Source of the DNA: Henricia sp. BOLD:AAB3569
Lineage: Eukaryota > Echinodermata > Asteroidea > Spinulosida > Echinasteridae
Direction: 5' to 3'
Assembly: GCA_037783545.1 (NCBI GenBank)
Contig: JBBELK010000033.1
Span: 62,001 to 126,000, forward strand
DNA length: 64,000 bases
Under the pieces are notes generated by a model. That model was not told the DNA's origin, ran no database searches, and saw only the letters and a list, made by a program, of their open reading frames with translations. Positions 17,306-55,614 of the stretch are shown here, one piece after another; positions within the stretch are counted from its first letter, which is position 1; the number at the start of each line of letters is the position of its first letter. Made by a program: the position numbers and the translations under genes.

Positions 17306-17469
17306 TACACGTACGTGTTCACTTCTTCACGGCATTTACTTAAAACCAACCACATAGAGCTGTTCCAGGGATTCGCAAAACGTTTAGTCTATACAAATCG
17401 CGGTACAATGGTCTAGTACCTCAAAGTTATACATTTCATCTGTGCAAGCGGTAGCATGGCGGCATGATG

Positions 17470-24354: not shown

Positions 24355-24400
24355 GGCGCGCGCGCATTGCTGACGAGCCTGTGCCTTTAACTATTGACTA

Positions 24401-24556
24401 AAGCGGGCCTCCCACTGTGCGATTTTGGCTACGAATTAGGTACGATTGGCTACGATTTGGTACCACTGTCTATAGACTCTATACAGAATCGTACCAAATC
24501 GTAGCTAATCGTTGGAAATTCGTGGCAAAAATCGCACAGTGGGAGGAGGCCCGCTT
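24401..24556. mobile_element. MITE with AAGCGGGCCTCC ends
   Basis: The left AAGCGGGCCTCCCACTGTGC and right GCACAGTGGGAGGAGGCCCG pair as inverted ends. Inside are repeated TACGAATT/TACGATTTGGTAC motifs. 156 bp, no ORF. Confidence 0.8.
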
Positions 24557-25094
24557 GAGACATCGACCAGCAAAGTTAACAAGCGGGAGGTTATGAACCA
24601 AAATGTTTATTCAAGGTTCAAGGTTCAAGGTTCATTTATTTGATGCTCCAAACAATTTGTTCCAGAAAATACATCATTTTGAAAACCGAGGAAAACCGAG
24701 GATTCTATCAATTTTTTATTGCAGTTTTAGACATATAGGTAAAATCGGATTTGAATTCAGATTGGGTGCGTGAAATTCACGTCGTGGCTTTATCGTGCCC
24801 TATAAATCATTTTATTCGGGCTAGTAACAAGATATCATTTTATCTCGATCACCAAAACAATTTTTAAAATGCAAAGATTAAGCAATTCTGCTGCGAATTC
24901 CGGGTTTACTTTGAATTTACTGTGGTCAGAGCATGCAATATCCAGCGATAACAGAACGGAAGTGAGTTGATTCCAAGCAATTTAACGCAACTTGCACCAT
25001 TGATTTCATGGCGGATTTTTGATGACTGATTCCTAAAGTCTGCTGGACCTTGGTACGTGATATCACAGTGCGAGGATTGTGCAAATAAAGTCTT

Positions 25095-27334
25095 ATTGTT
25101 GTCAAGTCCAACTAGTGGCATGGTGGCTGTACTTATTGTTGTCAAGTCCAACTAGTGGCATGGTGGCTGTACTTATTGTTGTCAAGTCCAACTAGTGGCA
25201 TGGTGGCTGTACTTATTGTTGTCAAGTCCAACTAGAGGCATGGTGGCTGTACTTATTGTTGTCAAGTCCAACTAGTGGCATGGTGGCTGTACTTATTGTT
25301 GTCAAGTCCAACTAGAGGCATGGTGGCTGTACTAATTGTTGTCAAGTCCAACTAGAGGCATGGTGGCTGTACTTATTGTTGTCAAGTCCAACTAGAGGCA
25401 TGGTGGCTGTACTTATTGTTGTCAAGTCCAACTAGTGGCATGGTGGCTGTACTTATTGTTGTCAAGTCCAACTAGAGGCATGGTGGCTGTACTTATTGTT
25501 GTCAAGTCCAACTAGAGGCATGGTGGCTGTACTTATTGTTGTCAAGTCCAACTAGAGGCATGGTGGCTGTACTTATTGTTGTCAAGTCCAACTAGAGGCA
25601 TGGTGGCTGTACTTATTGTTGTCAAGTCCAACTAGAGGCATGGTGGCTGTACTTATTGTTGTCAAGTCCAACTAGTGGCATGGTGGCTGTACTTATTGTT
25701 GTCAAGTCCAACTAGAGGCATGGTGGCTGTACTTATTGTTGTCAAGTCCAACTAGTGGCATGGTGGCTGTACTTATTGTTGTCAAGTCCAACTAGAGGCA
25801 TGGTGGCTGTACTTATTGTTGTCAAGTCCAACTAGAGGCATGGTGGCTGTACTTATTGTTGTCAAGTCCAACTAGTGGCATGGTGGCTGTACTTATTGTT
25901 GTCAAGTCCAACTAGAGGCATGGTGGCTGTACTTATTGTTGTCAAGTCCAACTAGTGGCATGGTGGCTGTACTTATTGTTGTCAAGTCCAACTAGAGGCA
26001 TGGTGGCTGTACTTATTGTTGTCAAGTCCAACTAGTGGCATGGTGGCTGTACTTATTGTTGTCAAGTCCAACTAGAGGCATGGTGGCTGTACTTATTGTT
26101 GTCAAGTCCAACTAGTGGCATGGTGGCTGTACTTATTGTTGTCAAGTCCAACTAGAGGCATGGTGGCTGTACTTATTGTTGTCAAGTCCAACTAGAGGCA
26201 TGGTGGCTGTACTTATTGTTGTCAAGTCCAACTAGTGGCATGGTGGCTGTACTTATTGTTGTCAAGTCCAACTAGAGGCATGGTGGCTGTACTTATTGTT
26301 GTCAAGTCCAACTAGAGGCATGGTGGCTGTACTTATTGTTGTCAAGTCCAACTAGAGGCATGGTGGCTGTACTTATTGTTGTCAAGTCCAACTAGAGGCA
26401 TGGTGGCTGTACTTATTGTTGTCAAGTCCAACTAGAGGCATGGTGGCTGTACTTATTGTTGTCAAGTCCAACTAGTGGCATGGTGGCTGTACTTATTGTT
26501 GTCAAGTCCAACTAGAGGCATGGTGGCTGTACTTATTGTTGTCAAGTCCAACTAGTGGCATGGTGGCTGTACTTATTGTTGTCAAGTCCAACTAGAGGCA
26601 TGGTGGCTGTACTTATTGTTGTCAAGTCCAACTAGAGGCATGGTGGCTGTACTTATTGTTGTCAAGTCCAACTAGTGGCATGGTGGCTGTACTTATTGTT
26701 GTCAAGTCCAACTAGAGGCATGGTGGCTGTACTTATTGTTGTCAAGTCCAACTAGTGGCATGGTGGCTGTACTTATTGTTGTCAAGTCCAACTAGAGGCA
26801 TGGTGGCTGTACTTATTGTTGTCAAGTCCAACTAGTGGCATGGTGGCTGTACTTATTGTTGTCAAGTCCAACTAGAGGCATGGTGGCTGTACTTATTGTT
26901 GTCAAGTCCAACTAGTGGCATGGTGGCTGTACTTATTGTTGTCAAGTCCAACTAGAGGCATGGTGGCTGTACTTATTGTTGTCAAGTCCAACTAGAGGCA
27001 TGGTGGCTGTACTTATTGTTGTCAAGTCCAACTAGTGGCATGGTGGCTGTACTTATTGTTGTCAAGTCCAACTAGTGGCATGGTGGCTGTACTTATTGTT
27101 GTCAAGTCCAACTAGAGGCATGGTGGCTGTACTTATTGTTGTCAAGTCCAACTAGTGGCATGGTGGCTGTACTTATTGTTGTCAAGTCCAACTAGTGGCA
27201 TGGTGGCTGTACTTATTGTTGTCAAGTCCAACTAGTGGCATGGTGGCTGTACTTATTGTTGTCAAGTCCAACTAGTGGCATGGTGGCTGTACTTATTGTT
27301 GTCAAGTCCAACTAGAGGCATGGTGGCTGTACTT
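25095..27334 (+). repeat. Minisatellite, 40-bp unit, 56 copies with a two-state variant
   Basis: The unit is ACTTATTGTTGTCAAGTCCA then ACTAGWGGCATGGTGGCTGT. I count 56 units. All but one differ only at W: by hand about 24 carry T (ACTAGTGGC) and 32 carry A (ACTAGAGGC). One unit near 25334 reads ACTAATT. T units cluster at both ends of the array and the centre is mixed. The 40-bp period is not a multiple of 3 and frames close, so it is not a coding repeat. Confidence 0.95.
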
Positions 27335-28204: not shown

Positions 28205-31190
28205 CGGCGACGCCGCTTGTTTCGATTGGGGAAAAGGGTTAGCTCCGAAACAGTCAACTCCCCCTCCAACCTATACCCGCCCCCCACATCCCACCCCCAC
28301 CTCCTTGCCAACCCCGCCCCCCGTAATACTATATGCCTCCGTTTATAGTCCAAAGTGTTTTCGAATGCTGGGAAAATCATGCAAATCGGGGTGAACGTCC
28401 TAGAGTTTGCTAAGCTCAAATCAAGCATATCCGTTGGGAATAGCGAGCATAAGAAAACGACATTATACCAAGTCAACAATTCAGACTACAACAATGAATA
28501 AATCCTAACACAATTCATCAGCAATCTCTGCTAGCAAACCACATAAAGTGGGTTAATTGTTTCTTTTTAGCTGTATACTGACGATCGTGCCCGCACTGAC
28601 CCTGACTAATTCATCATCAAACGCAAATATTATCCAGGGCTGCGGTCGATCCTGCTTTTTTTTAACACTCTTGGAAATTCACACGGTGACTTTCGAAGTG
28701 TTTTAGAGGGGGAAATTTATTATTTTTTTCCGGGTGCTAAAATGGTACTTCTGATTATTCTGTTCGGGCGGCGTGTCCGGACAAAACCGGTAGTGCAGAA
28801 CGCCGTCGGGGCTAATGGCCGGACATCCTAAAACAAATCATCTCGCATGTACGAGCTACATTAGGCCTACTTTGTGGGCACAAAAAAGACTGATTTAGTA
28901 AGAAACGCATCTATAGCACCTTCAAAGTGCGCACAATCATTGTTTGGGTCTCAAAATACCACACGAATCACCATAGACTACCGAAGTGAATGCGTCATAT
29001 TTTGCATAGGCAATGGCTCGACACTAAATCCCTGAACCGTGTCCCTGTGCTTTTGCAATGGTACTTTTTTCTGTTTAGAGCCAATTACCATGGCAACACG
29101 TCACACTTCGGCTGTCTATTGTCCTTTATAATGGTTGATTGGTGGAATTTACGGGGCGAAGCGCAGACGCTTCTGAACCAACTCGTGCACACAAGTCAAT
29201 TTTCTCGTGCTATGCGAGCAAAATAATTTATCTATAGGCGAGCGAGCGAGCTAATTCATCTCGGCGCACGAGATACACATACATATGTAGTTCGTATAAA
29301 TCTATTGTTTTGAAGATGTCCATTTCGGGACTCCGTAAACCTGACCGATTGTCCGAGACATTTCTGTATATTAACCGGGCAGTGTACTTTGAACGCCAGC
29401 TATCTTGTTTTAGTTGTGTCTGCATGGCGATGAGATTTTGTCTGCAGTTGCGTGATTTGAAATATTACTTTGACGAGTACGTGTAAGTCCGTCCATGTAT
29501 TTTGTAACAAATTGTGTGGTATGTTTTTGATATTGCTGTATCTCTGACAACATCGCATTTGTTGGCTTGTTTGCAACATGATCGTGTCACATTTTCGCGG
29601 GAAAGCGTTTATTTGGTCTAAAAGTAAATCAATTTGCACGGTCTAATTGACATGTATATACTTCTGACCAATCACAATGTATCTTTGCAGCACTACAGTC
29701 ATGGACAGTATTACACCCGAGTCAACTCATAGGCCTATAAAGCCTTTGCACGGCGGCCATGACAGGGGACAGTCCCATTGTCACTGTGTGTCAAGCATGA
29801 GTAGGTGCTTTGTGGTTCCATTGTCACATCATTTAAATAAGAAAACCTGCCCCCTGTCATGGCCGCCGATGCAGAAGCTCTATTGGGTTTCTAGCCCAGA
29901 TGGACTCCTCTCTTCGCTGCACTACGGAATGAGATGAAGGTATGACGTCCAACCTAGACTAATTTGGTTTCAACCAAATAAAACCGTCGTGGTGCATGCA
30001 TGACGCGTACCGCTTAAGAACCATTTTGCGGAAATATCAGTCCAATCACGACACTGATACAAACCTTTCGGAGTGCACCCTTCTGCTACAAATGAGCCAA
30101 AATAACTAACTTTCGTGCGCGCAAACTGTTTTCGGAAGAAAAATCCCGCGGAGCAACAATTTTATTTTACAAACCTCAATGGAACATTCACACCCCGAGT
30201 GTTTGAATTTACATTAATGCAAATAAACGTAAATGTAACCTTATTTTAAGTTATTTGAACCATGTAGGGAAAAATACGTATATTTTAACGAGTATGCCTA
30301 GAAACGGTCAATAACAGATCGCGTTTCCAGATTTTTCTCATCTGACAAGTCTCGATTTCTTGCCAAAACTATACAAGCTTCTGCGGTTAACGTATTGGAT
30401 ACATTTTGGTTACAACTCAATTTATTAAGAATGTAGCATCGTTATAGTGTAGTTTACACAGAGAATGTGATATATATCAACACGCCTAATAACCACAGAC
30501 CTCCCATGAAGGATATTCAATAAGGTCTCAGTTCTATTTTAACGACGTACATTTTATAAAGTTATAAAAGCAATTTCCACAGGGCAAAATTAGATTAAAA
30601 AAAAAATTTAACTCGTTTCCCTCTCTCCTTTGATCCAATTAACATTTTTGTCATTCACAAAAAAAATATCATGGGACCGGATGACAAACAAATCATATAT
30701 CCTTCACAGAATGGACAAAAACAGCCATGATTTGTTATAAACCATGTTGGGTTTCACGGACATTAACCGACATAAACTGAATGTATATTCACTTCTTCCC
30801 CGAGAAAAACTTCATAACGTGGGACTCGAACCCACAACCTCCTGCATATTAGGCAGATGTCTTAACAACTAAACCGCCGAGCTGGCCGGTGTTCGAATCA
30901 CTGTGGACCCATTATTCACAATAGTGAATAAAACGAACGAGAAACGAGTTAGTGTAATAGTGTGTTTTAATTCATCATCTTCAACATTTTCAAAAGTTAC
31001 ATCAAATATATAATGCTTACCTTGTCACAAACTGGAAGAAACTGTTGTAAAGTTTGTATTAAAATGTCTCCTTTACCGACTGGCAAGACCTTATTGACAT
31101 GAATAGCACCGTCATGAAAGAAGTTGATTTTTTGTTCTTTTAAAAACATTTCAACATGTATAAAAATATAATAAAACATAAGTACAACCA
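28205..31190. other. No gene seen
   Basis: AT-rich sequence with the second copy of the 27.8-kb dispersed repeat at 28975-29115. A tRNA-like SINE head sits on the minus strand at about 30815-30890 (GTGGGACTCGAACCCACAAC on +, which is a reversed B box). No exon with a family motif. Confidence 0.45.
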
Positions 31191-31935: not shown

Positions 31936-32305
31936 TTATCCCTATGAACCAAACTGGGCAAAGTAACAAATGCCATATCTGGTATGGTACCCAATTACCA
32001 CTGAAATGAAACAAACAAACCTAGTGAGTTTGAGGTCGCAATAAGGCCTTACAATTTTTCTTTCATTTCAAGAATGGTATAGAAAGGTTCCTGAGTGGAT
32101 ATTAGAACTCGCCCCTTCACTGGAGAGGTCGCTGGGGCTTTTAAGAAACATTTTGTAACAAAAGCCTTGTATTATCTGCTTGCTATAACAATGAAAAATA
32201 GGGATATGAAAATTCCCTTCTTTTAAACAGCGCTCACAAAGTTCTGCACCAATGCAACAAAAAGAGAAAATCTGGGTTCTTGGGAAAAATTCGAGGGAGT
32301 ATACC

Positions 32306-32881
32306 TCTGTGCCTTATAGCTCAACTGGTAGAGCATCTGCCTGGTGTGTCAGAGGTCTTGGGGGAAAACCTAACGGAGTATACCTCTGTGCCTCATAGCT
32401 CAGATGGCAGAGCATCTGCCCGGTGTGTCAGAGGTCTTGGGGGAAAACCTAACGGAGTATACCCCTGTGCCTCATAGCTCAGATGGCAGAGCATCTGCCC
32501 GGTGTGTCAGAGGTCTCAGGGGAAAACCTGAGGGAATATACCACTGTGCCTCATAGCTCAGCTGGCAGAGCATCTGCCTGGTGTGTCAGAGGTCTCAGGG
32601 GAAAACCTGAGGGAATATACTACTGTGCCTCATAGCTCAGCTGGCAGAGCATCTGCCTGGTGTGTCAGAGATCTCAGGAGAAAACCTGAGGGAATATACC
32701 ACTGTGCCTCATAGCTCAGCTGGCAGAGCATCTGCCTGGTGTGTCAGAGGTCTCAGGGGAAAACCTGAGGGAATATACCACTGTGTCTCATAGCTCAGCT
32801 GGCAGAGCATCTGCCTGGTGTGTCAGAGGTCTCAGGGGAAAACCTGAGGGAGTATACCACTGTGCCTCATAGCTCAGCTGG
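32306..32881 (+). repeat. Tandem array of tRNA-like heads, 79-bp period
   Basis: CCTCATAGCTCAGCTGGCAG-type heads start at 32312, 32391, 32470, 32549, 32628, 32707, 32786 and 32865, an exact 79-bp spacing. Each unit keeps the A-box-like TAGCTCAGNTGG, but the B box is replaced by GTCTCAGGGGAAAACCTGAG, itself a small hairpin. It lies just 3' of POFUT2. These are not tRNA genes because no acceptor stem or B box is present. Confidence 0.85.
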
Positions 32882-33127: not shown

Positions 33128-33287
33128 TTAATGATAAACTATTTTCCAGACTGAAGGTTGTTCACAATCATCTGGTTCCTCATCCCCACAGAACCTGTTG
33201 TAGGTCATCTTGGGGTCAAATCCTAGAATCTGTCGCTCTTCATGAATTCGGAAGGAAAATGTGGACACGCCGGTTCCTATGAAATAT
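33128..33287 (-). CDS. POFUT2: POFUT2 exon 8 (terminal, intact copy A)
   Basis: After the acceptor CCCTTCCAG the exon completes the split Arg codon and runs [19 protein letters not shown]... to [12 protein letters not shown] and TAA at 33130-33128. This is the only copy with the true C-terminus; the inverted copy at 38998 breaks off seven residues earlier. It lies in arm A of the rearrangement. Confidence 0.92.
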
Positions 33288-36200
33288 CTGGAAGGGACCA
33301 CATTTTGACAGAAAATTTTTACTACGAAAATTGTTAATTAGGAGGGGTATACAGGGGCGGATCCAGGAATTTTTCCAGGATGGGCTTTTGCCACCAGGGA
33401 GGGGTTTTGCCCGTCAGATTTTTATGTCAGCTTGTTTCGGACACACAAAAAATGCATTACATTATATTTTTTGGTGTCGGAGCAGGGAGGGGTTTTGACC
33501 CCCAAAACCCCCCCTCTGAATCCGCGCCTGGTATAGTTGTATTTGTTTTCATGATTCAGTATGTTCCCGCCCACTTTATTTTGTCTATTCCCTGCATTTC
33601 CCCTACTGTCTTTTTCATTTTTCAACCTCATCCTTTTCTGGCCTCCAATTTCCTCCCAATATTCCTTTTTACTAACTACACTTAAAGTAAAGTTCCAGAC
33701 CATGTTAGATGGAGCAGTCAACAGAGGGCAGGGCTCGACCTTAACGCTAGCCAGGCGTACATTGTCTAGTAAAAACTGCTGTGGGCAAGTAAAATCCACT
33801 TTTCAACTTGCCCGGCGGGCTACTTAAAACATGTGCACGTTCCTTGTTTTCCAGATGTGATTATTGAAAATAAAACGCACTCTTCAAAGCTTTACCTTTT
33901 GCGGCATGCAAACGACGATTGCGCATTGCATTTTTCCACGTGCAACACACGGCCACAGCTAGCTTGGGTCTGCATTGTGTCCAACACAGCTTGTGTACAA
34001 TATACGTGCATAGACATACATGCATCTGGTATCCGACTGCGGCCCCATACTGGCTCGGCCCCAAACTCGGCCCCAGACCAACTCGGCCCCCAATGCCTTG
34101 TGTACAAACTCGGCCCCAGACTGACTCGGCCCCAATTGCCTTGTGTACAAACTCGGCCCCAGACCAACTCGGCCCCCATTGCCTTGTGTACAAACTCGGC
34201 CCCAGACTGACTCGGCCCCAAACAGGCTAAACATTTGATTTTTCCCCAAAAGTCCATATACAGTGTGTTTTCAAAGATTTTAAGGAACTTTTTTTTTTAT
34301 TAGGAGAGCTATTAGCTCTCCTCGATTATCTCAGAAGAGCAATTTAGGGCTCTCCTGACTTTTTTAAAAATGAAGGACTGAAGAAGAGGAGGAAGAACAT
34401 CCCGACTCCACTACAAGCGACAGTGATTTCTAGCCATGGGGGGGATGAACAAAAATCAACTTTCTCAGTGCTAGTCAATATTTTAATGCTTTGTTTTTTT
34501 TATTTTTCAAACATTTCATGGGCTAGTAAAAATGTCTGCGGGCTAGTAAAAAACACAATTTACTAGCCCAGTGGGCTACTCTCAGAAAAAATTAAGGGCA
34601 AGCCCTGGAGGGCATTCTTATTTATTGCGTCTAGAGCAGCCGGTGATCCCACACCATGTTTCTTCGTTTGAACGAACACCGCCCCTATATGGAGCCAAAT
34701 GAGCACTCGGCATTTTTGGGGGTACTTCATGAGTTAAATTGCTTCTTTCCATGATATCCTAGCAGTGACCTGACATCACTAGTCCTTGCAAAGGGGACAT
34801 TGGTCCACCTTTTTAACAAAAGAACTTCCATCATTGAATCACTAAACAACCAGCCTACGACCTTGGCCTTTCCTATAATCTTCTGGCCTACAGGTTTCAT
34901 TTTCCTATCTACCCATCCACTCACCTTGCATGTGCACATATCCACTGGTCTATAATCGCCACGCCTCCATCCTTGAAGTTTTCCGAGATGCCCTTGGGTG
35001 GCACATAGTTGTAAACTTGATAATCTGGAAGATGTCTTCTTATTTCATCAATTTCTGTAGTATGATACAGAAATATATTGATAGAAACCTCAATATCCTT
35101 AAATGAGTAACATTGAGAGAATGAATGTTATTTACATGTAGGGTTTGTTTATCCCTTAATACCAGACGTCAGCTGACTGTATTCACCACTTGCATGGAAC
35201 TGCCATATTGGTAAAACAGCAAGGCTTTCCTTGCTTGAACAATGACTCCCTCGCGTTGTTACCATATACCGGTTGCTGTGATGTTGACTTTTGTCCATTG
35301 TAAAATATGCCCAGAAAGCCTCGTTTTGGACGCAAACGTGCAAGTGGTGAATAGCCAGTGCATCCCTGAGACACTACAAGAAGAACTACATAGTCCAGGC
35401 CCCTAGCTGGTTTTAAATGTATGTTTAAGACTGCCCAAACCCCGTTTTATTCCCTAATTAACTGCACTCGGAAAGAAATTATATTAAAATTTATAGGCGA
35501 TCCTCAGCAAATTTTGAGCAGTATGTGAGAATGAACTACTTTATTTACTTGGTTTATGAAAAATTATTTTATACAAAACCGTATGAAATAATCTCCAATT
35601 TGTTTTCAAACTCTTCCAGAGAACGCCAGGATCAGCAGTCGGTGGCCCTTACCTAGCAGCACATCTTAGGAGAGAGGACTTTGCTCGCAGCCATCGCAAA
35701 GAGGTTCCATCATTGAAAAAAGCAGCAGAGCAGATTAAAATGGCGCTACAAAAATACGACCTCGAGAAAGTGTTTATAGCAACGGATGCACCAAAACATG
35801 GTAAGATTATAGCAGAGAGAGAGAAAATTGTGTGTTTCTATGATAAGCTCTGTACTTAGTCCCATCTCAGTGAGTTATCGGGCCAATTTCATGCCGCTGT
35901 TAAATGGCCAATTTGTTGTTAACAGAGCGTCTTTCCGTTTCATTAGACTGTAACCTTAAGTTAAATACTGCAAAATGTTAACTTTAGAGGAAAAATGTAC
36001 TTAAATAGTGATTGAACAATAATGTTTCTAAGCATGCACATCCACTTGTAAAATGTTGAGGGTTCTACTTCCAACTGGTATTCTAATTATTCCCTGTGAC
36101 AGTTTTATGGAAGATGTGTATACATGCTGGAGTTTTCTGTGATAGTTTAATGAACAATGATATTGTGAAAGAATGGTTGAAAAATGTCAATGGGTCCCAT

Positions 36201-39200
36201 GTGCTTTGTACACAAAATGGAGTAACAACACAAGGCAAGTTGAATTGTGTTGTTATGCATGGCTGTTATGAGAAGCTGTCAGGCGTGGCTGTCGGTTGCA
36301 GCTGCTGGGCGCGGCTGTCGGGCGCGGCTGTCGGGCGCAGCTGTCGGCCACAGCTACCGGCTGCAGCTATCGGCTGTTGGGCGCGGCTGTCGGACGTGGC
36401 TGTCGGGCACAGCTGTCGGGCTGCAGCTATCGGCTGTCGGGCACGGCTGTCGTTGAAGCAAACAGTGCCATGTGATAAAGCCTCAAGGTGTTGTAAAAGT
36501 CAAGTTGTGGTGAGAGAAGTTGCAAAGGTATTGTACAAACAGGAGTCTTAACTTTTTGAAATCATTTTTGGAGGATAAGGCAGTTTATTGCCAGATAATC
36601 CCGATGTTACGTGTTTAAGGATTTCAAGGCTTCTATCGGTGCATTTCTGGATCAGGAAAGTTCATTTAGCTTGAGTTTAGTTTTGCTTTTACACAACGTA
36701 ACTTGATAAACATTCATTCTCCCCGATACAAGCTATATCACCTTCCCTCATCGGTTGCTGTTCCTGCCGCTGTATAATTCGAACCAGCCATTCAAAACCA
36801 ACCATTCAAAACCAACCACCTCAATGGTCGAGTGGTTAAGACGTCTGCCTAGTATGTAGGAGGTTGTGGGTTCGAGTCCCACCCAAGCACACTATGTAGT
36901 TCTTCTTGTAGTGTCTCAGGGATGCACTGGCTATTCACCACTTGCACGTTTGCGTCCAAAACGAGGCTTTCTGGGCATATTTTACAATGGACAAAAGTCA
37001 ACATCACAGCAACCGGTATATGGTAACAACGCGAGGGAGTCATTGTTCAAGCAAGGAAAGCCTTGCTGTTTTACCAATATGGCAGTTCCATGCAAGTGGT
37101 GAATACAGTCAGCTGACGTCTGGTATTAAGGGATAAACAAACCCTACATGTAAATAACATTCATTCTCTCAATGTTACTCATTTAAGGATATTGAGGTTT
37201 CTATCAATATATTTCTGTATCATACTACAGAAATTGATGAAATAAGAAGACATCTTCCAGATTATCAAGTTTACAACTATGTGCCACCCAAGGGCATCTC
37301 GGAAAACTTCAAGGATGGAGGCGTGGCGATTATAGACCAGTGGATATGTGCACATGCAAGGTGAGTGGATGGGTAGATAGGAAAATGAAACCTGTAGGCC
37401 AGAAGATTATAGGAAAGGCCAAGGTCGTAGGCTGGTTGTTTAGTGATTCAATGATGGAAGTTCTTTTGTTAAAAAGGTGGACCAATGTCCCCTTTGCAAG
37501 GACTAGTGATGTCAGGTCACTGCTAGGATATCATGGAAAGAAGCAATTTAACTCATGAAGTACCCCCAAAAATGCCGAGTGCTCATTTGGCTCCATATAG
37601 GGGCGGTGTTCGTTCAAACGAAGAAACATGGTGTGGGATCACCGGCTGCTCTAGACGCAATAAATAAGAATGCCCTCCAGGGCTTGCCCTTAATTTTTTC
37701 TGAGAGTAGCCCACTGGGCTAGTAAATTGTGTTTTTTACTAGCCCGCAGACATTTTTACTAGCCCATGAAATGTTTGAAAAATAAAAAAAACAAAGCATT
37801 AAAATATTGACTAGCACTGAGAAAGTTGATTTTTGTTCATCCCCCCCATGGCTAGAAATCACTGTCGCTTGTAGTGGAGTCGGGATGTTCTTCCTCCTCT
37901 TCTTCAGTCCTTCATTTTTAAAAAAGTCAGGAGAGCCCTAAATTGCTCTTCTGAGATAATCGAGGAGAGCTAATAGCTCTCCTAATAAAAAAAAAAGTTC
38001 CTTAAAATCTTTGAAAACACACTGTATATGGACTTTTGGGGAAAAATCAAATGTTTAGCCTGTTTGGGGCCGAGTCAGTCTGGGGCCGAGTTTGTACACA
38101 AGGCAATGGGGGCCGAGTTGGTCTGGGGCCGAGTTTGTACACAAGGCAATTGGGGCCGAGTCAGTCTGGGGCCGAGTTTGTACACAAGGCATTGGGGGCC
38201 GAGTTGGTCTGGGGCCGAGTTTGGGGCCGAGCCAGTCTGGGGCCGCAGTCGGATACCAGATGCATGTATGTCTATGCACGTATATTGTACACAAGCTGTG
38301 TTGGACACAATGCAGACCCAAGCTAGCTGTGGCCGTGTGTTGCACGTGGAAAAATGCAATGCGCAATCGTCGTTTGCATGCCGCAAAAGGTAAAGCTTTG
38401 AAGAGTGCGTTTTATTTTCAATAATCACATCTGGAAAACAAGGAACGTGCACATGTTTTAAGTAGCCCGCCGGGCAAGTTGAAAAGTGGATTTTACTTGC
38501 CCACAGCAGTTTTTACTAGACAATGTACGCCTGGCTAGCGTTAAGGTCGAGCCCTGCCCTCTGTTGACTGCTCCATCTAACATGGTCTGGAACTTTACTT
38601 TAAGTGTAGTTAGTAAAAAGGAATATTGGGAGGAAATTGGAGGCCAGAAAAGGATGAGGTTGAAAAATGAAAAAGACAGTAGGGGAAATGCAGGGAATAG
38701 ACAAAATAAAGTGGGCGGGAACATACTGAATCATGAAAACAAATACAACTATACCAGGCGCGGATTCAGAGGGGGGGTTTTGGGGGTCAAAACCCCTCCC
38801 TGCTCCGACACCAAAAAATATAATGTAATGCATTTTTTGTGTGTCCGAAACAAGCTGACATAAAAATCTGACGGGCAAAACCCCTCCCTGGTGGCAAAAG
38901 CCCATCCTGGAAAAATTCCTGGATCCGCCCCTGTATACCCCTCCTAATTAACAATTTTCGTAGTAAAAATTTTCTGTCAAAATGTGGTCCCTTCCAGATA
39001 TTTCATAGGAACCGGCGTGTCCACATTTTCCTTCCGAATTCATGAAGAGCGACAGATTCTAGGATTTGACCCCAAGATGACCTACAACAGGTTCTGTGGG
39101 GATGAGGAACCAGATGATTGTGAACAACCTCAGAAAAAATTAAGGGCAAGCCCTGGAGGGCATTCTTATTTATTGCGTCTAGAGCAGCCGGTGATCCCAC

Positions 39201-42200
39201 ACCATGTTTCTTCGTTTGAACGAACACCGCCCCTATATGGAGCCAAATGAGCACTCGGCATTTTTGGGGGTACTTCATGAGTTAAATTGCTTCTTTCCAT
39301 GATATCCTAGCAGTGACCTGACATCACTAGTCCTTGCAAAGGGGACATTGGTCCACCTTTTTAACAAAAGAACTTCCATCATTGAATCACTAAACAACCA
39401 GCCTACGACCTTGGCCTTTCCTATAATCTTCTGGCCTACAGGTTTCATTTTCCTATCTACCCATCCACTCACCTTGCATGTGCACATATCCACTGGTCTA
39501 TAATCGCCACGCCTCCATCCTTGAAGTTTTCCGAGATGCCCTTGGGTGGCACATAGTTGTAAACTTGATAATCTGGAAGATGTCTTCTTATTTCATCAAT
39601 TTCTGTAGTATGATACAGAAATATATTGATAGAAACCTCAATATCCTTAAATGAGTAACATTGAGAGAATGAATGTTATTTACATGTAGGGTTTGTTTAT
39701 CCCTTAATACCAGACGTCAGCTGACTGTATTCACCACTTGCATGGAACTGCCATATTGGTAAAACAGCAAGGCTTTCCTTGCTTGAACAATGACTCCCTC
39801 GCGTTGTTACCATATACCGGTTGCTGTGATGTTGACTTTTGTCCATTGTAAAATATGCCCAGAAAGCCTCGTTTTGGACGCAAACGTGCAAGTGGTGAAT
39901 AGCCAGTGCATCCCTGAGACACTACAAGAAGAACTACATAGTGTGCTTGGGTGGGACTCGAACCCACAACCTCCTACATACTAGGCAGACGTCTTAACCA
40001 CTCGACCATTGAGGTGGTTGGTTTTGAATGGTTGGTTTTGAATGGCTGGTTCGAATTATACAGCGGCAGGAACAGCAACCGATGAGGGAAGGTGATATAG
40101 CTTGTATCGGGGAGAATGAATGTTTATCAAGTTACGTTGGGTAAAAGCAAAACTAAACTCAAGCTAAATGAACTTTCCTGATCCAGAAATGCACCGATAG
40201 AAGCCTTGAAATCCTTAAACACGTAACATCGGGATTATCTGGCAATAAACTGCCTTATCCTCCAAAAATGATTTCAAAAAGTTAAGACTCCTGTTTGTAC
40301 AATACCTTTGCAACTTCTCTCACCACAACTTGACTTTTACAACACCTTGAGGCTTTATCACATGGCACTGTTTGCTTCAACGACAGCCGTGCCCGACAGC
40401 CGATAGCTGCAGCCCGACAGCTGTGCCCGACAGCCACGTCCGACAGCCGCGCCCAACAGCCGATAGCTGCAGCCGGTAGCTGTGGCCGACAGCTGCGCCC
40501 GACAGCCGCGCCCGACAGCCGCGCCCAGCAGCTGCAACCGACAGCCACGCCTGACAGCTTCTCATAACAGCCATGCATAACAACACAATTCAACTTGCCT
40601 TGTGTTGTTACTCCATTTTGTGTACAAAGCACATGGGACCCATTGACATTTTTCAACCATTCTTTCACAATATCATTGTTCATTAAACTATCACAGAAAA
40701 CTCCAGCATGTATACACATCTTCCATAAAACTGTCACAGGGAATAATTAGAATACCAGTTGGAAGTAGAACCCTCAACATTTTACAAGTGGATGTGCATG
40801 CTTAGAAACATTATTGTTCAATCACTATTTAAGTACATTTTTCCTCTAAAGTTAACATTTTGCAGTATTTAACTTAAGGTTACAGTCTAATGAAACGGAA
40901 AGACGCTCTGTTAACAACAAATTGGCCATTTAACAGCGGCATGAAATTGGCCCGATAACTCACTGAGATGGGACTAAGTACAGAGCTTATCATAGAAACA
41001 CACAATTTTCTCTCTCTCTGCTATAATCTTACCATGTTTTGGTGCATCCGTTGCTATAAACACTTTCTCGAGGTCGTATTTTTGTAGCGCCATTTTAATC
41101 TGCTCTGCTGCTTTTTTCAATGATGGAACCTCTTTGCGATGGCTGCGAGCAAAGTCCTCTCTCCTAAGATGTGCTGCTAGGTAAGGGCCACCGACTGCTG
41201 ATCCTGGCTTTCTCTGGAAGAGTTTGAAAACAAATTGGAGATTATTTCATACGGTTTTGTATAAAATAATTTTTCATAAACCAAGTAAATAAAGTAGTTC
41301 ATTCTCACATACTGCTCAAAATTTGCTGAGGATCGCCTATAAATTTTAATATAATTTCTTTCCGAGTGCCGTTAATTAGGGAATAAAACGGGGTTTGGCC
41401 AGTCTTAAACATACATTTAAAACCAGCTAGGGGCCTGGACGAGTGATAATGGCCCGAGACACAGGCGAGGACTAATATTAGCATCCAGGACCCTAGCCGG
41501 TTTTAAACGGATGTTCAAGACAGGCCAAACCCACTTTTATTCCCATTCATAAATACCTTTTTCGTTTAAATCGGTAAAACTCACAAAAATTCTTCAATAA
41601 TCTTGTCGTTTTGCAATGTACTTTCAGTTACATGCATGACCACGTTCGTTCAAACTGCTGTGCGTCGAGTTGTTTTTGTTTGATGCCCACGTTACGCGTA
41701 ATGCAAGCGTTGTTGTATGCACACGCACACAACCCGGTACTTGCCACAGTGCACATTTTGCTTTCCGGCGCGTGCAGTTTGTGCAAGTGCGTGTTCCATA
41801 AGCGCTGAATAGGGCGCGGGTGCAGGCCAGGGTAAAAAGAGTTAAAGACTGGCCGGTCTTTATCGTCCATTTAAGACTGTGATGTGCTCTCAGCCAATCG
41901 GGATGCGTAAACTGTCTAAGGTATTTTTTAATGTTTTGAAATATTTGTTCTTATATAAAGAATCAATAAACATACCGTACTCACTGTATTTGTCTTAAAG
42001 ATTCTAAATTTTTACTTTTAATAGAATTATACAATTGGACCTCATTAATTAGAGGTCCTTTTGACTTTGTAGGCACATTGTATTATCAGAAATGAAAACG
42101 ATGAACAGTATTAACAGTGCTCTTATTATCAGGGTTTCTTGTTATAAGCAGAATGTTGTATTAACAGTGCTCTTATTATCAGGGTTCCTTGTTATAAGCA

Positions 42201-45200
42201 GAATGTTGTATTAACAGTGCTCTTATTATCAGGGTTCCTTGTTATAAGCAAAATGTTGTATTAACAGTGCTCTTATTATCAGGGTTCCTTGTTATAAGCA
42301 AAATGTTGTATTAACAGTGCTCTTATTATCAGGGTTCCTTGTTATAAGCAGAATGTTGTATTAACAGTGCTCTTATTATCAGGGTTCCTTGTTATAAGCA
42401 GAATGTTGTATTAACAGTGCTCTTATTATCAGGGTTCCTTGTTATAAGCAGAATGTTGTATTAACAGTGCTCTTATTATCAGGGTTCCTTGTTATAAGCA
42501 GAATGTTGTATTAACAGTGCTCAGTGTTGTATTTGTGCAGTGCAAATGTCAGTGATTCACAACAATTCAGCATTTGCTTCGGAAACTAGTTTGTCAACTC
42601 AATACTTCGACTATCCCCCCTAAAATCATGTTATGTTTGTATATTGCTTCTCAAGATGTTGAAGAAATATGACTTATACAGATTGGTAGATAACAAAGAG
42701 TGTCTCACCTCCATTTCCCTCCAGTCTTCTGTGAGTTTGGTTTTATCGTTCTCGTCGTTAGATCCTAGTTTACTTTGTCTGAATTCATCACCGATGTCAC
42801 GTAGATGTTTCGCAAATCGCATGGATCTTCTTGCCTGCAATTACAAAATTCTAATAAAAAAATGTCCTCAGGGCTGATAATTAACCATTACGAAAAGCCC
42901 AGGGGCCAATTTCACAAAACATGTTAGGACCCGATTTCTGATTAAGCAGCGCTCTCTCCATTCCATAAAACTGTTTAAGCACTAGCAAACCAAACCGCAT
43001 GCTAACGTGACGCCATCTTTATCTTCGCCATACTCGGCAAAATTCGAGATACACTACAGATACACAACTTTCAGCTGTTGTTTAAATATCCCAGTCAGCG
43101 ACAAGCAAGGGTCTTCTGCGGTAGTGATAATCATCTCAAAATTGAAAACATTATCGATGATGGTACTTGAAAATTTTGACGTTGACTTATGAAAGCAGCC
43201 GATGAACGTGCTCGAACAAAACAGACGACAGCGTTGCGCGCGCGCTCTCTCTACGCGCGCTTAGAACAACAAGCTTTATGAAACAGGCCCTTGCTTGAGC
43301 GAATTTTCGTGCTATGCTTAATCCAACATTGTTGATTAAGCGTAATATGTTTTATGAAATTGGCCCCTGGTTGGAGAACAACCACTGCATTGTGACAAAC
43401 GTCCAGGCTACCAATTCCAGCTGCCATAGTGAAATTATTTGCATATTCTCAACCAAGCACTTGTCTAACTCGGCACCCAAAGAACATGTGAGCAAAATTT
43501 TAGAGATATCCGACAGCTAACTTTGTAAAAATTGTTGTAAAAAGGTTCACTATGGCAGCTGGAACTGGCACCCTAGGGCTGCGTTCAGCCGGGCGTATAC
43601 TCGTGTTAACACGAGTATACTCCTGCGCGCACAAACAGCAAGATTAACGACACTCAGGTCAGTGAGAGTATGCTCTAGCTACTCCCCAACAAGTGGGGAG
43701 TTTGCTCTTACTCCTGACGAATGCCATGTGATTAGTACGAAGATGGCAGAGTATGGGTTGGATATTTGGTGAATTTGCTCAACGTGTCAACTCAATAACT
43801 CACTAAGCCTTGCTTTAGACGGCATCAAAGGTTCTCACGACTTACGGCCTGTATTTTCTTTAGTTTCTTGTGAGTAGTGAAACAGCGTTTTTTGTGTAGT
43901 CATGGCAAGAGACGGCCATCTTCAACTGATAGCCATTCGCTCATGCGGACTGCGGACCTGCCGTTCGCATAATGTGACCTGAGTAGCGAGAACTGTACGC
44001 CCGAACGCAGCCTAGTTGTCAGTCGCATTGCAATAAAGACGTCATCCAACTTGGGCTAAATTATTAATAAATTTAAATGAACAAACTGAATGAATTCACA
44101 GTTAGCTGAAAATATTAGCTTTCAAATTAAATACATTGTATCATTAAAAATGGCAAATATGAGACGATTTATCTTTACTGTTTCCCACAAAAAATAGAAT
44201 TCAAAACAGAAGAAACTGGTCATCAAGATGTTTGTTAGTATTAAATGTCAAACCTCTGAGAAAATAGGGAAAAAATAGAAAAGTAGAAGATGAAATCAAG
44301 TGTAACTAATGAAGTAACATGGTTTAGTCCCTTTGCTATCATTTATCAATGGCCATTCTTCAATTTTGTTACTAGAGGAACGAGAAAATGACAATGTACC
44401 GGTACACCAAGAAATATGATGCACTCTGCGAAAACAAGTTCCTTCTCATACAGCCTAGACCATGTTTTTTTAAACCATAACTAGAAATCAGTGATGAATC
44501 TTGGTTCATTAAAGGTTTAGTGAAGTGAAAATTATCAACCAGCTGTTTTTATACATGTACACAAATCAAAAGGGCAAACTCAAATTTGTTATTATTTCAG
44601 AAAGAAGTGACCTTTTCTCTACTTCAAACATTTCTTGTCAGGTGAGGGCGCTGTGGGTATTACTGGTCATGGAGGGAACCCACAGTTGAAAAACAAAGAA
44701 AGAACATTACATTTTAAACAGTAACAGCAGCCCACTGATCCATTTTTGACCCCAACAAACTTGTTAGAATTGTTGCAAAAACTCAGCAAACTGATGCAGT
44801 TCATATTACATGTATCAAGAAGCCACAGAAAATGACACCAACTTTTGTACACAAGACAGTGGAGAATTCTTCTGTTGTCCTGAGATGACATCACAGCTTT
44901 GCTCATGAATATGTAAATTCTCATTAGCATAAAAATAGAAAACTTGCAATTACACCAAAATGCAACTATCAAATTCTCTAAAATTGATCGAAATGTGTAA
45001 AACACATCCTCTACTGTTATTTTACGCAATAAAAATCCTATTTCATGCATTCTTTAAAATACAAACACACAATGGAAATTCTCGGCGGTACATGAAGACC
45101 GCCTGGAATATCTGGGTACCACGCAGAATTTCAATTGTATTTTCATATTTTAATGAGCCTCGGTCAGCCGCTGATTTTTTAGTTACATGTATGGTAGCAA

Positions 45201-48200
45201 AAACTGTGCAAGATGCGACTCATTATTGCAGAGTGTGTCTCACATAACTTTGAAGAATGGCCACTTACATTCCAGTATTGCACTTGACCATAGTAATCAT
45301 GAAGTATTTCTTCCCCTCGGTCAACAAAAACAGATCTGAGAAAACAGACAGTGTTAGGGATTTAACAAAACTAAACAACGAGTCGACAAAATGATAATTG
45401 CTAGGACATTAAGCTGCCATTCACCGACTGTGTCAAAGTGGACCAATTGGTTAATGTCCATTGTCACTGAATGAAAGCTTTGTCTGGGAGAGAAAAAAAA
45501 CATGAACTTGTGAGAAAGCAATCTTAAACATTTAGCTTCAACCAAATCTTGGACGAAGCTTATTACTTCAACCCAATGCAAATTCTTAACATGCTATTTA
45601 CCACTTGCACGGCCGCATTCAAAACAAGGCTTTCCTGGCATACATCATATTTTACAATGGACAAAAGTCAACGTCACAGCAACCAACATGGCAATGACGC
45701 GAGGGAGTCATTGTTTATGCAAGGAAAGCCTCGCTGTTTTTCCAATATGGCGGTTCCGTGCAAGCGGTGAATGGCCAAATGCATAGTTCCGATTTTGCCC
45801 AGTTAACCCCACCCCTTGAATATTGTTGCTATGCCTCATACGCTATCGTCAAAATGGCGACACACAACGCATAAAGCAATGGGAGTTTCAACGGAAATCA
45901 CAGATTTATTGGAGAAAACTCAAAGGTATTCATGTTTCAGGGTCGACAGTTATCTTAGAACACACTGAGTAAAGGGCCAGTAATACAGGAATGTCATATC
46001 ATGAAATACATGCTTTCGTACCTTTGAACAACGAAATGACCGGCCTTGAAACAAAAAATTCACCCGGATCATCGCATACAACACTGTACAAATTGTATGG
46101 AGCAGAACATCGCGTGATGTTGTTGTGAGACAGTGCACTTTGACCTTTGTGGGCGCTGTCTGCTAGCTCTGTTGTGATTGGTCGGCGGGTTTGGCTTGAT
46201 TGACAGGTCGGAACTATGGATTACAGTGACCCTTTTAGACAAGCAGAGTGCAAACAAACTGAGATTTAGTCAGCTCATCCAAGATTGCTTTCCCACTGCA
46301 AACAACTATATTATAAACTTACATCCCAATATGAAACATCCCCAAAGTGATCGTGAAGTAACTTCTCTCCCCTGTCAACAAACACAGACCTGGGTGTGCC
46401 ATGTGGAGGCACACCATAAATAATGAGTTTACAATCAATTGGTAAAACAAAGCATGTGTGGTCTAGTTGGTACACAGCTGTGCTTATGATCCAGAGGTTA
46501 TGGGTTCAAGCCTCACCGGTGTCAACTGTGAGGAAAGACACTTAATCTCAATTGCCTCGTCAACCCAAGCAATATTTAGGGAGCTGTTAGGGGGAATGCC
46601 ACAATCTAAGTGCTGATAGGGTTGTGCGCCTATCAGCACTTTCACCAGAACCATTTCACTAAAGATAAATGGTTCTTGTGATTTCCTGATGGCAGCGATA
46701 ATAATGGCGGCGATAATAATGGCGGAAGATTCCTGCAGGATAGACATGTGCGCTATACAAGAATCCATTACTAAAACAAAGTCGGACTTGTCTTTACATG
46801 AAATATTTTGTCAGCCTCCTTTGACAAATTTCATTTTCAGTTTATGCATCGGCAAAAACCTTCTCCGAGCAGGTTTTAATTTGCCATTGCTAGCATCAGC
46901 AAATAATGGTTTATAGCTGTTTCTCAAATACAAATAGAAAAATTTAAATGCACAATTGGACCGTAAACAAAATTAATAGAAGGGCAGTGTCATTGTTTCT
47001 GAATGACATGCATGGTTGCAAATTTTGTGTTTACATTGTTTACCTTTTAAATATTATAAAATCTGGCCTATACAAAATTGCGCATTTTCATGATAACCAT
47101 AATGCATAGTTCCGAGATTGCCCAGTTAACCCCGCCCCTTAGATATTGTTGCTATGCGCTCACAAGCCATCGCAAAAAATGGCGACACACAACGTACAAA
47201 GCAACGGGACTCGGCATGGAAAGCACAGATTCATTGGAGAAAACTCAAAGGTATTTATGTTTTAGGGTCGACAGTTACCGTAGCACACACTGAGGGAAGG
47301 GCTAGTAATGCAGGGATATTCATAAAAATGCGCTTTCCTAGACCTTTGAACAGCGAATCGCCCGACATTGAAACCAAAATTCACCCGGTCACTGGCGCAT
47401 ACAACATACAAGCTGTATGGGCAGAAAATCTCGTGATTGTGTGATGATTGCATCACTTTGACCTATGTGGGCGCCGTCTGCTAGCTCTGTTCTGATTGGT
47501 CGGCGGGTTCGGCTTGATTGACAGGTCGGAACTATGCATTACCTCTCTTCTTCCTCTAAATCTTCCAATTCCATTTGATCTTGGAATAAAGTCAGAACTT
47601 GATAGGTTGCTCGCCGCATATCAACACCAAAGCTTGCTAGCCTATTTATTGTTTTTTATTTTGTTAATCTCTCGTTGACTGCAGCCAATTTATTGAGAGG
47701 AATGCATTGTTCTTACACTGACCCTGTATATCAGGGAAGGAATTTCATGACGGCCACGGCGGCCATTGCCGTCGATGCCCTTTTAATTGCCGTGATGCCC
47801 CTTTTTAAAATGCAGTTTCCACGGCCAACTATGCTGTGCCTTTTTAATACCTTGGCCGCAGTGCCCTTTTGTAAAAAAAACAAACGAGCATGCCATTGTC
47901 AGAAACTCATTTTGTGTCCATTTGCAAAGCGCTAAAAAAAATAAACGCATCCGAGTCGGTCGTACATTGATTGCGGCCGTACTGACACTGACAGTAGAAA
48001 AAAAAGGACATCGCACTCGCACCGTACCACACCGCATGCATGTGGTGCATGTACTGTAACGAACTCTGGATTCAGCTCAATACCGTGTACACGTACGTAC
48101 TGATAGAGTGTTGGCTGTACGCAAAGCTTGAACATTATTCCGTTCATTTCGCAAACTCCAGAACTGCAATTGCGCTTGCCACAATTGCGCGAACATCCCC

Positions 48201-51200
48201 CTGTTGCGGACTCGCACAGACGTGCTGATACATGTGGAGTATACCGTAATCCAGTGGGAGTGTGTGGTGTGTGAACAGCGTGCACGTGCATGTGCTGCTT
48301 TTCTTCGAAGCTTCGAGAACTAAACACAAGTGCAGCGTGTATGACTACTTTTTCTTGCAAAATAAATAAACGCAAATTCCTTAAGTTTAACAGCTGAAGT
48401 TTTAAAAATAGAACTGTGATTGTAATAAATGTGTATTGATCAGCGATGCCACGTAAGGATCGCATGAAATGCTCCAAGCAACTGGAACTGGACAGATCGG
48501 CCAGTAAATGCAGAAATTAAAGCTGGAATCGTTGATTCGTTCCTGATTGGCTCTGGGCGAGTTCAAAAATCTGCTCAAATTTTATCGAAATTGGCCGTGG
48601 TCATCAACATGTAGGTCATGGATTTATGAAAAATAATTTATTTTATAAATTTGACATCCGACCTGAGCAGATTCTGCCATTTGTGGACTATGTGAAAGGA
48701 TTACCGTCCCGTAGCCTACGTGATTTTACCTGTTGGTCGGTGGGTTTTCTCCCCACAAGCCGTATCCGGTCGGCGCCCTGTTTCGTTTCGAGTCGGACGA
48801 GTTGTCCCCGCGGACGAGTTGTCTCGGCGGACTAGTTGTCTCGGGCGAACGTCTTTGGGACCGGCTATCCCGGGCACGGGTTGTCCCGGAGACGAGTTTT
48901 TCTTGCAATATTTGGATTTTTTTTCTGGTTTTTCTTATTCTGTTTAGTCTAACTCCTAGTCCTAGGCCTATCTCAATTTTTGCTTTTCTGAATTGTGAGG
49001 AAACGGTAGCTAATACTATAGGCCTAGGCCTATTTGTTTTTATTTTAAAGCCTAGGTTTTTGGCATTTCTAAATTTTTGAAATGGATCAAGTCGTCCCCA
49101 GCCTAGGTCAACTCGCCCCCCGACATCGGTTACAGGTTTTATTTTATTTTAATTTTATTTTAATTGTTTTTAATTATAATTTTGTGAGAAATATTTCCCA
49201 AAAGGAAATGATGCATTTGAGGAAATATTTTACTTTCAGGTAAGCCTATTATACATGTAATTTTAGTACCTGTGTGTATTGCAAACTTATAAAAGTGAAT
49301 GCCAGGAATCGTAACATTGAATAAGAATTGTGCTTTTGTATTTTAAACTGGCAGTCGTGCCCTTTTTAAACATTTTTACATTGGCCTTGGTGCCCTTCTC
49401 ACTGGCCATGGTGCCCCTCAAAAATACAGGTTCTTTAAGGACAAAGTGGCCTTGCCCCTCGAGACGAAATTCCTACCCTGGTATATGTTTGTGTGACTCG
49501 ACTTGGGGGCACAGCTCTCTGAATCTTCCCAGCACCAATCTCCACATGATGCGTCTTTGCCCACGTTGTTTTCGAAACTGCTCACACAGGCGAATGAGGG
49601 TGGCGTTGGTGTCGTCGGCAGGCACCTGTGGAGCGACAGCCTCTTCATCAGATTGATCCTGCTCCTCGTCTTTAAACTCTCCGCCTGCAGCTTGGGCCTG
49701 CCCATCATTCTCTTCATGGTGCTGGTCAACAGGCGGCTGTTTCGGAATGACCTCACGCCACCATGCGTCGGGCGAGATCGGATCCGTTCGGTATCCCCGT
49801 GGTATATCCCATCAGAGACTTTATGTCTCCGAACAGCCTTTTCTCCGCAATGTTGACCGGTCTCCGTCTTCGATTCTCGGTAGTGATTCCGGCGAGGGCC
49901 AGTAGGTCAGTGGCGCGCTGCAGAAGTATGCCGCAGTCTTGGACGTAGTCGTCAATGGTGATGTACCGCTTTACTACCACTGCTGGAGCCAGGATGTGGT
50001 CCAGGTCATGAGGACGGCGGCTGACGAAGACTTGCACAGCCCCGGGGATCGTCAGCGCTTTGATGGATGCCTCCATCCTGATGCCTCCCAGTAGTTCAGG
50101 ATGGGCGGTCATGCTGGAGTGTGTACGACGGAAGTTGGCCAACTTTCGTGCTACAGCTCTGGTGTTGAATGGCTGGCTTATGTTAAAGTTGTGCGAAGTA
50201 CGCAGAAAGTGAAATGCTTCATTGTAAACTTTCAGCTGCAGAAGGTCGCCATCGGGAAACTTGATTGTCATGTTTCCTCCATGGTTTGAGAACAGGAAGG
50301 GGCGTTGATCCAACGGGGTGTACATGGGGTACATATCTATCTGCACCCAATGTGGCAACAGGTGGCGATCCTGGATCTTCATAACGTATATCAAGTTGTT
50401 ATAGATGGAGAACGCGATGTCGAAACGGTTGTCTGGATATCCCTCTTGCTCTACCGCGTCGCAGTGGATTTACTATAAACAAAAAATGGTTTATAGCTGT
50501 TTCTCCTGGAGGCATACCATTTCCAAAGCCTTTCAGAAATGGTAATTGAGCTTGGTAGAAACACGCTCAGGTATAAATACCATACACCTTCGCCACTAAT
50601 TCTTCCTAGTATGACATGATAATGCCCCAAAAAGTGTAAAATTGGTGAGGAAACATGATTTTAGCACCGAGAGGTTTTTCTTTGAAAACACTAAGGATTT
50701 TTATGTCATGCTTCCTAGACTGCGTGATGTCTCAACGGTATTTTGTCTCCCACTCATAGTTTGGTATCACGACACGACACCCATCTTACCTGGCTGTGAG
50801 GTTGTGTGTGAGTATCGGCACCAGTATTCTAGCCATTCCTTGCACTGACAGGCACTTGAATGCTTTAGCATGTACATCAGGATACCCCCAGAACCATCCC
50901 CTGTACAGCCCTTCATCATCTGGCCGGTATGCAGGAGGCTCAATGCAATCACGTTGGTCAATCCTCTCCTCCCATTTACCATCTGTCCATCCCTCCTTGT
51001 AAGGCTGGAGGTAGAGAATCTGGTCAATGGACGCTTGACCAGTTTCTGTTAATGAATAGGAACAAACAGAAAATATGATATAAATGATAATATGGACTTA
51101 TTGACCACTTGCATATACGTCATTTTGGAGTCAAATTATGACACGTCAATATTGGCTCCATGTGCGTGCGCGTTGTGTGTACCTCTGGTGGGCATAACAC

Positions 51201-55539: not shown

Positions 55540-55614
55540 TGTTAACCATTAACCCGCGGTGCTGCTCGCACATGGTACTAGCGCCACCAAGCGATAAGTG
55601 TTGTCATTCGGAAC

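What the first reader, a model, noticed from the sequence alone, without database searches (positions are those of the whole stretch)
33155..41442. DUP-TRP/INV-DUP rearrangement inside POFUT2, with 2-bp microhomology at both joins
Three arms can be read directly: A (33155-35394, gene sense), B (35393-39130, inverted) and C (39129-41442, gene sense). Exon 7 is present three times, exons 6 and 8 twice. Join 1 shares GT and join 2 shares CT between the parental sequences. This is the signature of microhomology-mediated template switching, as described for human DUP-TRP/INV-DUP alleles. The arms are nearly identical by eye (for example AAG/ACG in exon 6, ACTGGCTCG context at 34050/38235). It is therefore very recent, possibly polymorphic, or an assembly error in a heterozygous genome. 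If real, the transcript must skip exon 7A or lose frame.
Basis: partly seen in the sequence, partly recalled or inferred. Interest (0 to 1): 0.85.

Follow-up and report, generated by a model that had tools for sequence, protein, structure and literature searches.

The report
Recent inverted triplication inside POFUT2 gene
A stretch of an animal sugar-transfer gene (POFUT2) appears three times, the middle copy backwards, which looks like a recent DNA-copying slip of a kind already known from human disease and yeast; the gene could still make its normal protein if exactly one of two identical exons is used.

Summary
Arms A (33155-35394), B (35393-39130, inverted) and C (39129-41440) give a copy-number pattern 1-2-3-2-1: 1426 bp twice, 814 bp three times, 1498 bp twice. 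Five substitutions and no indels separate the copies. The gene is POFUT2 on the minus strand; exons 5-6C-7(C or A)-8A read to the stop, while using both exon 7 copies, or neither, breaks the frame. This is a small DUP-TRP/INV-DUP allele, best read as two template switches in one replicative event.

New points: one breakpoint (C 41440) lies at the stem-loop edge of a 166-bp imperfect palindrome; three of four B/C differences lie within 231 bp of join 1; all five differences are transversions, unlike array variation in the window. The 2-bp microhomologies are weak evidence (16.6% chance per join).

An assembly or library artefact is not excluded: no reads, relatives or whole genome were available. 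The low arm divergence argues against a merge of two diverged haplotypes. The kind of event is known; the small size and intragenic place make it a new member, not a new kind.

The parts
33155..35394 (-). Arm A, in the orientation of the gene (gene is on the minus strand); holds exon 8A (part) and exon 7A
35393..39130 (+). Arm B, inverted copy of x=33155-36892 (position = 72285 - x); its exons 6, 7 and truncated 8 lie on the plus strand
39129..41440 (-). Arm C, in the orientation of the gene, copy of x=34581-36892 (position = x + 4548); holds exons 6C and 7C
34581..35394 (.). Triplicated 814 bp, copy in A (others: B 36891-37704 inverted, C 39129-39942); all three identical
35393..35394 (.). 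Join 1 (A to B): x=35394 to x=36892, shared GT
39129..39130 (.). Join 2 (B to C): x=33155 to x=34581, shared CT
41379..41544 (.). Imperfect palindrome around the landing point of join 1 (x=36892 = 41440); the main stem of the DNA fold ends at 41439
42709..42834 (-).
41033..41213 (-). POFUT2 exon 6C, 181 nt, ends in phase 1
39473..39602 (-). POFUT2 exon 7C, 130 nt, identical to 7A
37231..37360 (+). Exon 7B, antisense to the gene
35620..35800 (+). Exon 6B, antisense to the gene; codon ACG where 6C has AAG
38998..39130 (+). Exon 8B, antisense to the gene, truncated before the stop codon
34925..35054 (-). POFUT2 exon 7A, 130 nt
33128..33287 (-). POFUT2 exon 8A, coding part to stop TAA at 33130-33128

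Best explanation
A real, recent, intragenic DUP-TRP/INV-DUP allele made by one replicative event with two template switches. Read along the plus strand, synthesis ran to x=35394, switched to the opposite strand 1498 bp ahead at x=36892, ran backwards to x=33155, then switched again to x=34581 and went on. The result is sense - inverted - sense, with 814 bp three times and the flanks (1426 and 1498 bp) twice. The landing point of the first switch is at the tip of a 166-bp imperfect palindrome, so a hairpin or cruciform there may have started or caught the event. Clustered transversions just after join 1 may be errors of the low-fidelity synthesis. The gene keeps its sense exons in order (5, 6C, 7C, then 7A, 8A); normal POFUT2 protein is made when exactly one of the two identical exon 7 copies is spliced in. 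Shown: structure, breakpoints, identities, reading frames. Inferred: the mechanism, the role of the palindrome, that the allele exists in the animal, that splicing copes.
For: Structure and base-level joins. Copy-number order 1-2-3-2-1 with an inverted middle matches human DUP-TRP/INV-DUP as described in PMC10766186 section 5, where the tabulated junction homologies are mostly 0-5 bp or lie in repeats. Both joins have 2 bp of shared sequence. Palindrome at point 2: score 81; among 300 random positions the best local inverted repeat has 95th percentile 41 and 99th percentile 244; 0.21% of window bases lie as close to the centre of such a palindrome. B/C differences at 41, 70, 231 and 1300 bp from join 1; P = 0.003 for three of four within 231 bp, or 0.016 if all five differences and either end of B are counted (chosen after seeing the data). 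At 36851 two other copies of the repeat agree with C, so B is the changed copy. Human DUP-TRP/INV-DUP joins carry point mutations near the junction (passages of PMC4352052). A tandem duplication followed by inversion cannot give this order (own reasoning from the coordinates).
Against: Microhomology is near chance. All five differences are transversions (0 of 5 transitions, against 16 of 22 variant sites in four tandem arrays of the window; Fisher P 0.006), which also fits base errors. One of the five (34048) is derived in A, not in the inverted copy. Only one of four breakpoints has a strong palindrome nearby. No read, second individual or relative supports either join.
Confidence: 0.58

Rival explanations
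1. Assembly or library artefact: chimeric, amplified or mis-joined molecules produced the two inverted joins, and the chromosome carries a single copy.
For: No reads are available. The transversion-only differences (0 of 5 transitions) look more like base errors than like the array variation of the window. Chimeric joins made during whole-genome amplification are often inverted with short homology (recalled; one search found no paper on it that I read).
Against: The joins are staggered by 1.4-1.5 kb on both sides, unlike a simple read that turns round at one point (recalled read behaviour). 0 indels in 3738 compared sites argues against raw long-read noise. If the arms came from two haplotypes differing at 0.5%, about 19 differences would be expected and P(5 or fewer) = 0.0002. 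The arrangement leaves every sense exon in order with matching phases, though this would be so for any join of this type in these introns.
Confidence: 0.22
2. Palindrome erosion (ODIRA type): an inverted triplication with long palindromic junctions formed first, perhaps at the 166-bp palindrome, and one arm of each palindromic junction was then deleted.
For: PMC10766186 derives exactly this end product that way. The point 2 breakpoint sits at the palindrome tip. The two asymmetries are similar (1498 and 1426 bp).
Against: No palindrome near the other end, x=33155: best local inverted repeat score 12. It needs two extra deletions. No replication origin could be tested.
Confidence: 0.12
3. Fragment capture: a staggered break with ends 814 nt apart was filled in (giving the direct repeat 34581-35394 / 39129-39942), and a 3738-bp copy of the same place was inserted backwards between the ends by end joining.
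For: The structure is formally identical to an inverted 3738-bp insert flanked by an 814-bp direct repeat. 2 bp of microhomology is usual for end joining (recalled).
Against: It needs a free fragment of the same locus and an unusually long overhang; it does not predict differences clustered at one join.
Confidence: 0.06
4. A mobile element or old segmental duplication kept alike by gene conversion.
For: Repeats are common in the window, and another near-identical inverted pair (7471-9194 / 9686-11409) does look like a transposon.
Against: The outer flanks of the arms share no target-site duplication (33135-33154 vs 41441-41460). The arms contain ordinary POFUT2 exons and introns.
Confidence: 0.02

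Closest known systems
[quoted passage not shown]
   Same: Copy-number order 1-2-3-2-1, triplicated part with an inverted middle copy, two joins in cis, short shared sequence at joins, point changes near a join (PMC10766186 section 5; passages of PMC4352052 and PMC11658439).
   Different: Far smaller: 814 bp triplicated, 1.4-1.5 kb duplicated, against a few kb to thousands of kb for the duplicated parts in the survey of PMC10766186. No join in a pair of long inverted low-copy repeats. Lies inside one gene with sense exons kept in order.
Small inverted triplications (SIT) in yeast rad27 mutants and cancer genomes (PMC13334657: abstract, passages and Discussion seen)
   Same: Flanking direct duplications, inverted middle fragment, spacers and short junction homology; blamed on replication errors, with hairpins.
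   Different: SIT medians are 148/160/148 bp with a 30-bp spacer and 6-bp junction; here the direct repeat is 814 bp, the unpaired loops 1496 and 1424 nt and the junctions 2 bp.
ODIRA inverted triplications (yeast SUL1)
   Same: Inverted middle copy; a palindrome at one breakpoint.
   Different: Junctions here are not palindromic; only one of four breakpoints has a strong inverted repeat; no origin tested.

Membership tests
DUP-TRP/INV-DUP | Copy-number order 1-2-3-2-1 with direct outer copies | tested here: met
DUP-TRP/INV-DUP | Middle copy of the triplicated segment inverted | tested here: met
   36891-37704 is the reverse complement of 34581-35394 and 39129-39942
DUP-TRP/INV-DUP | Two novel joins with little or no homology, or one of them in repeats | tested here: met
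   2 bp at each join; 2 bp or more is 16.6% by chance
DUP-TRP/INV-DUP (MECP2/PLP1 type) | One join inside a pair of long inverted low-copy repeats | tested here: not met
   only a 61-bp-arm palindrome at one of four breakpoints; the partner breakpoint x=35394 is not in it
DUP-TRP/INV-DUP | Both joins physically in cis on a chromosome, shown by reads or maps | not testable with these tools
   no genome held; no reads
Small inverted triplication (SIT) | Size near 148/160/148 bp, 30-bp spacer, 6-bp junction homology (medians) | tested here: not met
   814 bp direct repeat, loops 1496/1424, 2 bp; the published ranges for duplication and inverted fragment do reach kilobases
ODIRA inverted triplication | Short interrupted inverted repeats at both ends of the amplified part | tested here: not met
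   strong at x=36892 (score 81), none at x=33155 (best score 12); palindrome erosion could have removed such ends only beyond these points
ODIRA inverted triplication | Replication origin inside the amplified part | not testable with these tools
   no origin data

The most novel reading that the evidence does not exclude
The allele carries its own splicing switch. The single antisense exon 7 in arm B can pair with exon 7C or with exon 7A in the pre-mRNA (perfect duplex over the 814-bp core) but not with both at once, so one copy is hidden in double-stranded RNA while the other stays free: mutually exclusive exons by competing RNA pairing, created in one mutational step. The inverted arm would then repair at RNA level the frame damage that the direct duplication of a 130-nt exon would otherwise cause.
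Probability: 0.04. Interest if true: 0.65.

Novelty: new member of a known kind. Interest (0 to 1): 0.36.

Why it matters
[quoted passage not shown] Such alleles are hard to see with short reads, so young natural examples help to tell template switching from palindrome erosion. It is also a natural test of how splicing deals with duplicated sense exons flanking an antisense copy. If it is an artefact, it is a warning for gene models of POFUT2 in this assembly.

Tried and rejected
Two events in one window: the second near-identical inverted pair (7471-9194 / 9686-11409, 1 mismatch) first looked like a second template switch and would have hinted at a systematic artefact or a hyperactive genome. 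Its outer ends are flanked on both sides by ACCCTA with inverted termini TATGGGG, so I read it as a DNA element with long terminal inverted repeats and a 6-bp target-site duplication, and dropped the argument.

Tandem duplication plus inversion: worked out on the coordinates; it gives no third copy of the 814-bp part, so rejected. Mobile element for the arms: no shared outer flank. tRNA genes: ARAGORN found 0 in the window; Rfam finds tRNA-like matches (4 in the window), one of which in arms B and C (36825-36882, 39951-40008) lies next to breakpoint x=35394; I do not build on it.

Whole genome: none held. Relatives: viral contigs had 1 and genome contigs 17 pattern matches, none a relative by tblastn. 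These collections are not eukaryotic. Species: I suspect amphioxus from recall of similar sequences only; nothing tested it. The amphioxus mutation rate and heterozygosity (PMC12862219, passages) are therefore used only as an example.

Papers: 'inverted triplication' with 'amphioxus' gave 0 papers. A wider search listed 10 of 712 papers, none of the 10 with the term 'inverted triplication'. One search listed 15 of 67 and 15 of 28; by their titles and abstract starts these are human, cancer, yeast or Candida work or reviews and tools. So I saw no report of such an allele in an invertebrate germ line, but the search is narrow. Search for foldback-read artefacts gave one paper that did not bear on it and was not read.
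Full report
Observation. The window against itself gives exactly the three-arm structure described: A 33155-35394, B 35393-39130 inverted, C 39129-41440. With A's coordinates as reference (x), B is 72285-x and C is x+4548. Copy numbers along x are 2 for 33155-34580 (1426 bp), 3 for 34581-35394 (814 bp) and 2 for 35395-36892 (1498 bp). The three 814-bp copies are identical. Over the 3738 sites present at least twice there are five differences and no indel: x=34048 (A/B) and 35592, 36661, 36822, 36851 (B/C). The joins share GT and CT.

Gene. The gene is POFUT2 on the minus strand. The 3' exons match human POFUT2 chains 4ap5/4ap6 at E 2.8e-51, two upstream open stretches near 53.1-53.3 kb and 50.9 kb match the same chains at E 9.3e-65, and Pfam PF10250 hits at E 8.5e-27. 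I modelled the last exons only. All five have AG before them where an acceptor is needed, exons 5 to 7 have GT after them, and phases match. 5-6C-7C-8A translates without a break to the stop; 7A is identical to 7C, so skipping either copy gives the same protein. 7C plus 7A gives a stop two codons after the exon join; skipping both also breaks the frame.

Chance and strength. Kilobase inverted arms at 99.8-99.96% identity are not chance. The microhomology is weak evidence: about 200,000 simulated inverted joins within 2 kb, drawn from 41500-60000, share 2 bp or more in 16.6% of cases.

What was not in the finding. (i) The landing point of join 1 (x=36892, C 41440) lies 21 bp from the centre of an imperfect palindrome, 41379-41544, made of two head-to-head copies of a repeat end; the main stem of its DNA fold ends at 41439. 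Its score, 81, is above the 95th percentile (41) but below the 99th (244) of the best local inverted repeat at 300 random positions; 0.21% of window bases lie within 22 bp of the centre of a palindrome this strong (3 in the window, this one included). The other three breakpoints have best scores 12, 14 and 15, though an 11-bp stem lies next to x=34581. (ii) Three of the four B/C differences lie 41, 70 and 231 bp from join 1 (P 0.003; 0.016 for a looser count; both tests were chosen after seeing the data). At 36851 two other repeat copies agree with C, so B changed. At 34048 the neighbouring repeat units agree with B, so A changed. The other three could not be polarised by sequence held here. 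(iii) All five differences are transversions, against 16 transitions and 6 transversions among variant sites of four tandem arrays in the window (Fisher P 0.006). This may mean low-fidelity synthesis, or base errors; it does not look like ordinary drift.

Real or artefact. No reads, no genome and no relatives were available. The divergence is too low for two diverged haplotypes: at 0.5% heterozygosity about 19 differences are expected and P(5 or fewer) is 0.0002; at the 3.2-4.2% quoted for amphioxus (PMC12862219, passages) 120-157 are expected. The arms therefore come from one haplotype. Zero indels speaks against raw long-read noise. A chimeric-molecule artefact remains possible, and the odd base spectrum is a point for it. 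If the five differences are real mutations, the age is roughly 67,000-670,000 generations for rates of 1e-8 to 1e-9, and about 110,000 at the amphioxus rate of 5.89e-9; the species is not established.

Mechanism. The order sense-inverted-sense with overlap needs two switches: 35394 to 36892 on the opposite strand, and 33155 back to 34581. One replicative event with two template switches is the shortest account. Palindrome erosion after an inverted triplication gives the same end product (PMC10766186 section 5) and the palindrome at one breakpoint fits it, but the other end has none. Capture of an inverted local fragment at a staggered break is formally possible. Tandem duplication followed by inversion is not, since it gives no third copy of the 814 bp.

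How it may act. In the pre-mRNA, arm C (exons 6C, 7C) is made first, then B (antisense), then A (7A, 8A). B can pair with C over 2312 nt (loop 1424) or with A over 2240 nt (loop 1496), the 814-nt core with only one of them. I infer risk of exon hiding, dsRNA editing or lower output, and, as the boldest reading, mutually exclusive use of the two exon 7 copies. None of this was tested.

Known kinds. The structure meets the copy-number and orientation definition of DUP-TRP/INV-DUP and differs in size and in lacking long inverted repeats at a join. Small inverted triplications (PMC13334657; abstract, passages and Discussion seen) share the plan at about a tenth of the size or less. I therefore file it as a new member of a known kind. 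PMC11293582 (iterative template switches) is known to me only as a reference in PMC11658439; it is not held.

Noticed in passing
7471-11409: Near-identical long inverted repeat (1724-bp arms, 1 mismatch, a C/T transition; 491-bp spacer) flanked on both sides by ACCCTA with inverted termini TATGGGG: probably a recent DNA element with long terminal inverted repeats and a 6-bp target-site duplication. It ends inside an open frame 11367-11777 that had no Pfam hit.
   Followed up: partly
25092-27334: Large 40-bp minisatellite, 56 copies, 98% matches.
   Followed up: no
19927-20795 and 42108-42522: 31-bp array (28 copies) and 50-bp array (8.3 copies), both 98-99% matches; the second lies in the POFUT2 intron between exon 5 and exon 6C.
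   Followed up: no
32293-32881: 79-bp array, 7.5 copies, just downstream of POFUT2 exon 8A; its unit resembles a tRNA promoter region by eye.
   Followed up: no
36825-36882 and 39951-40008: tRNA-like repeat (Rfam RF00005, 39.6 bits) in arms B and C, immediately beside breakpoint x=35394; a relative lies at 30819-30875.
   Followed up: partly
16911-17324 and 24395-24562: Two other strong imperfect palindromes (scores up to 248 and 93).
   Followed up: no
49753-50469: 238-aa open frame on the minus strand between the POFUT2 stretch near 50.9 kb and exon 5, no Pfam hit at E 0.01.
   Followed up: no
14249-15148: 299-aa open frame on the minus strand with a sulfotransferase domain (PF19798, E 1.1e-10).
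   Followed up: no
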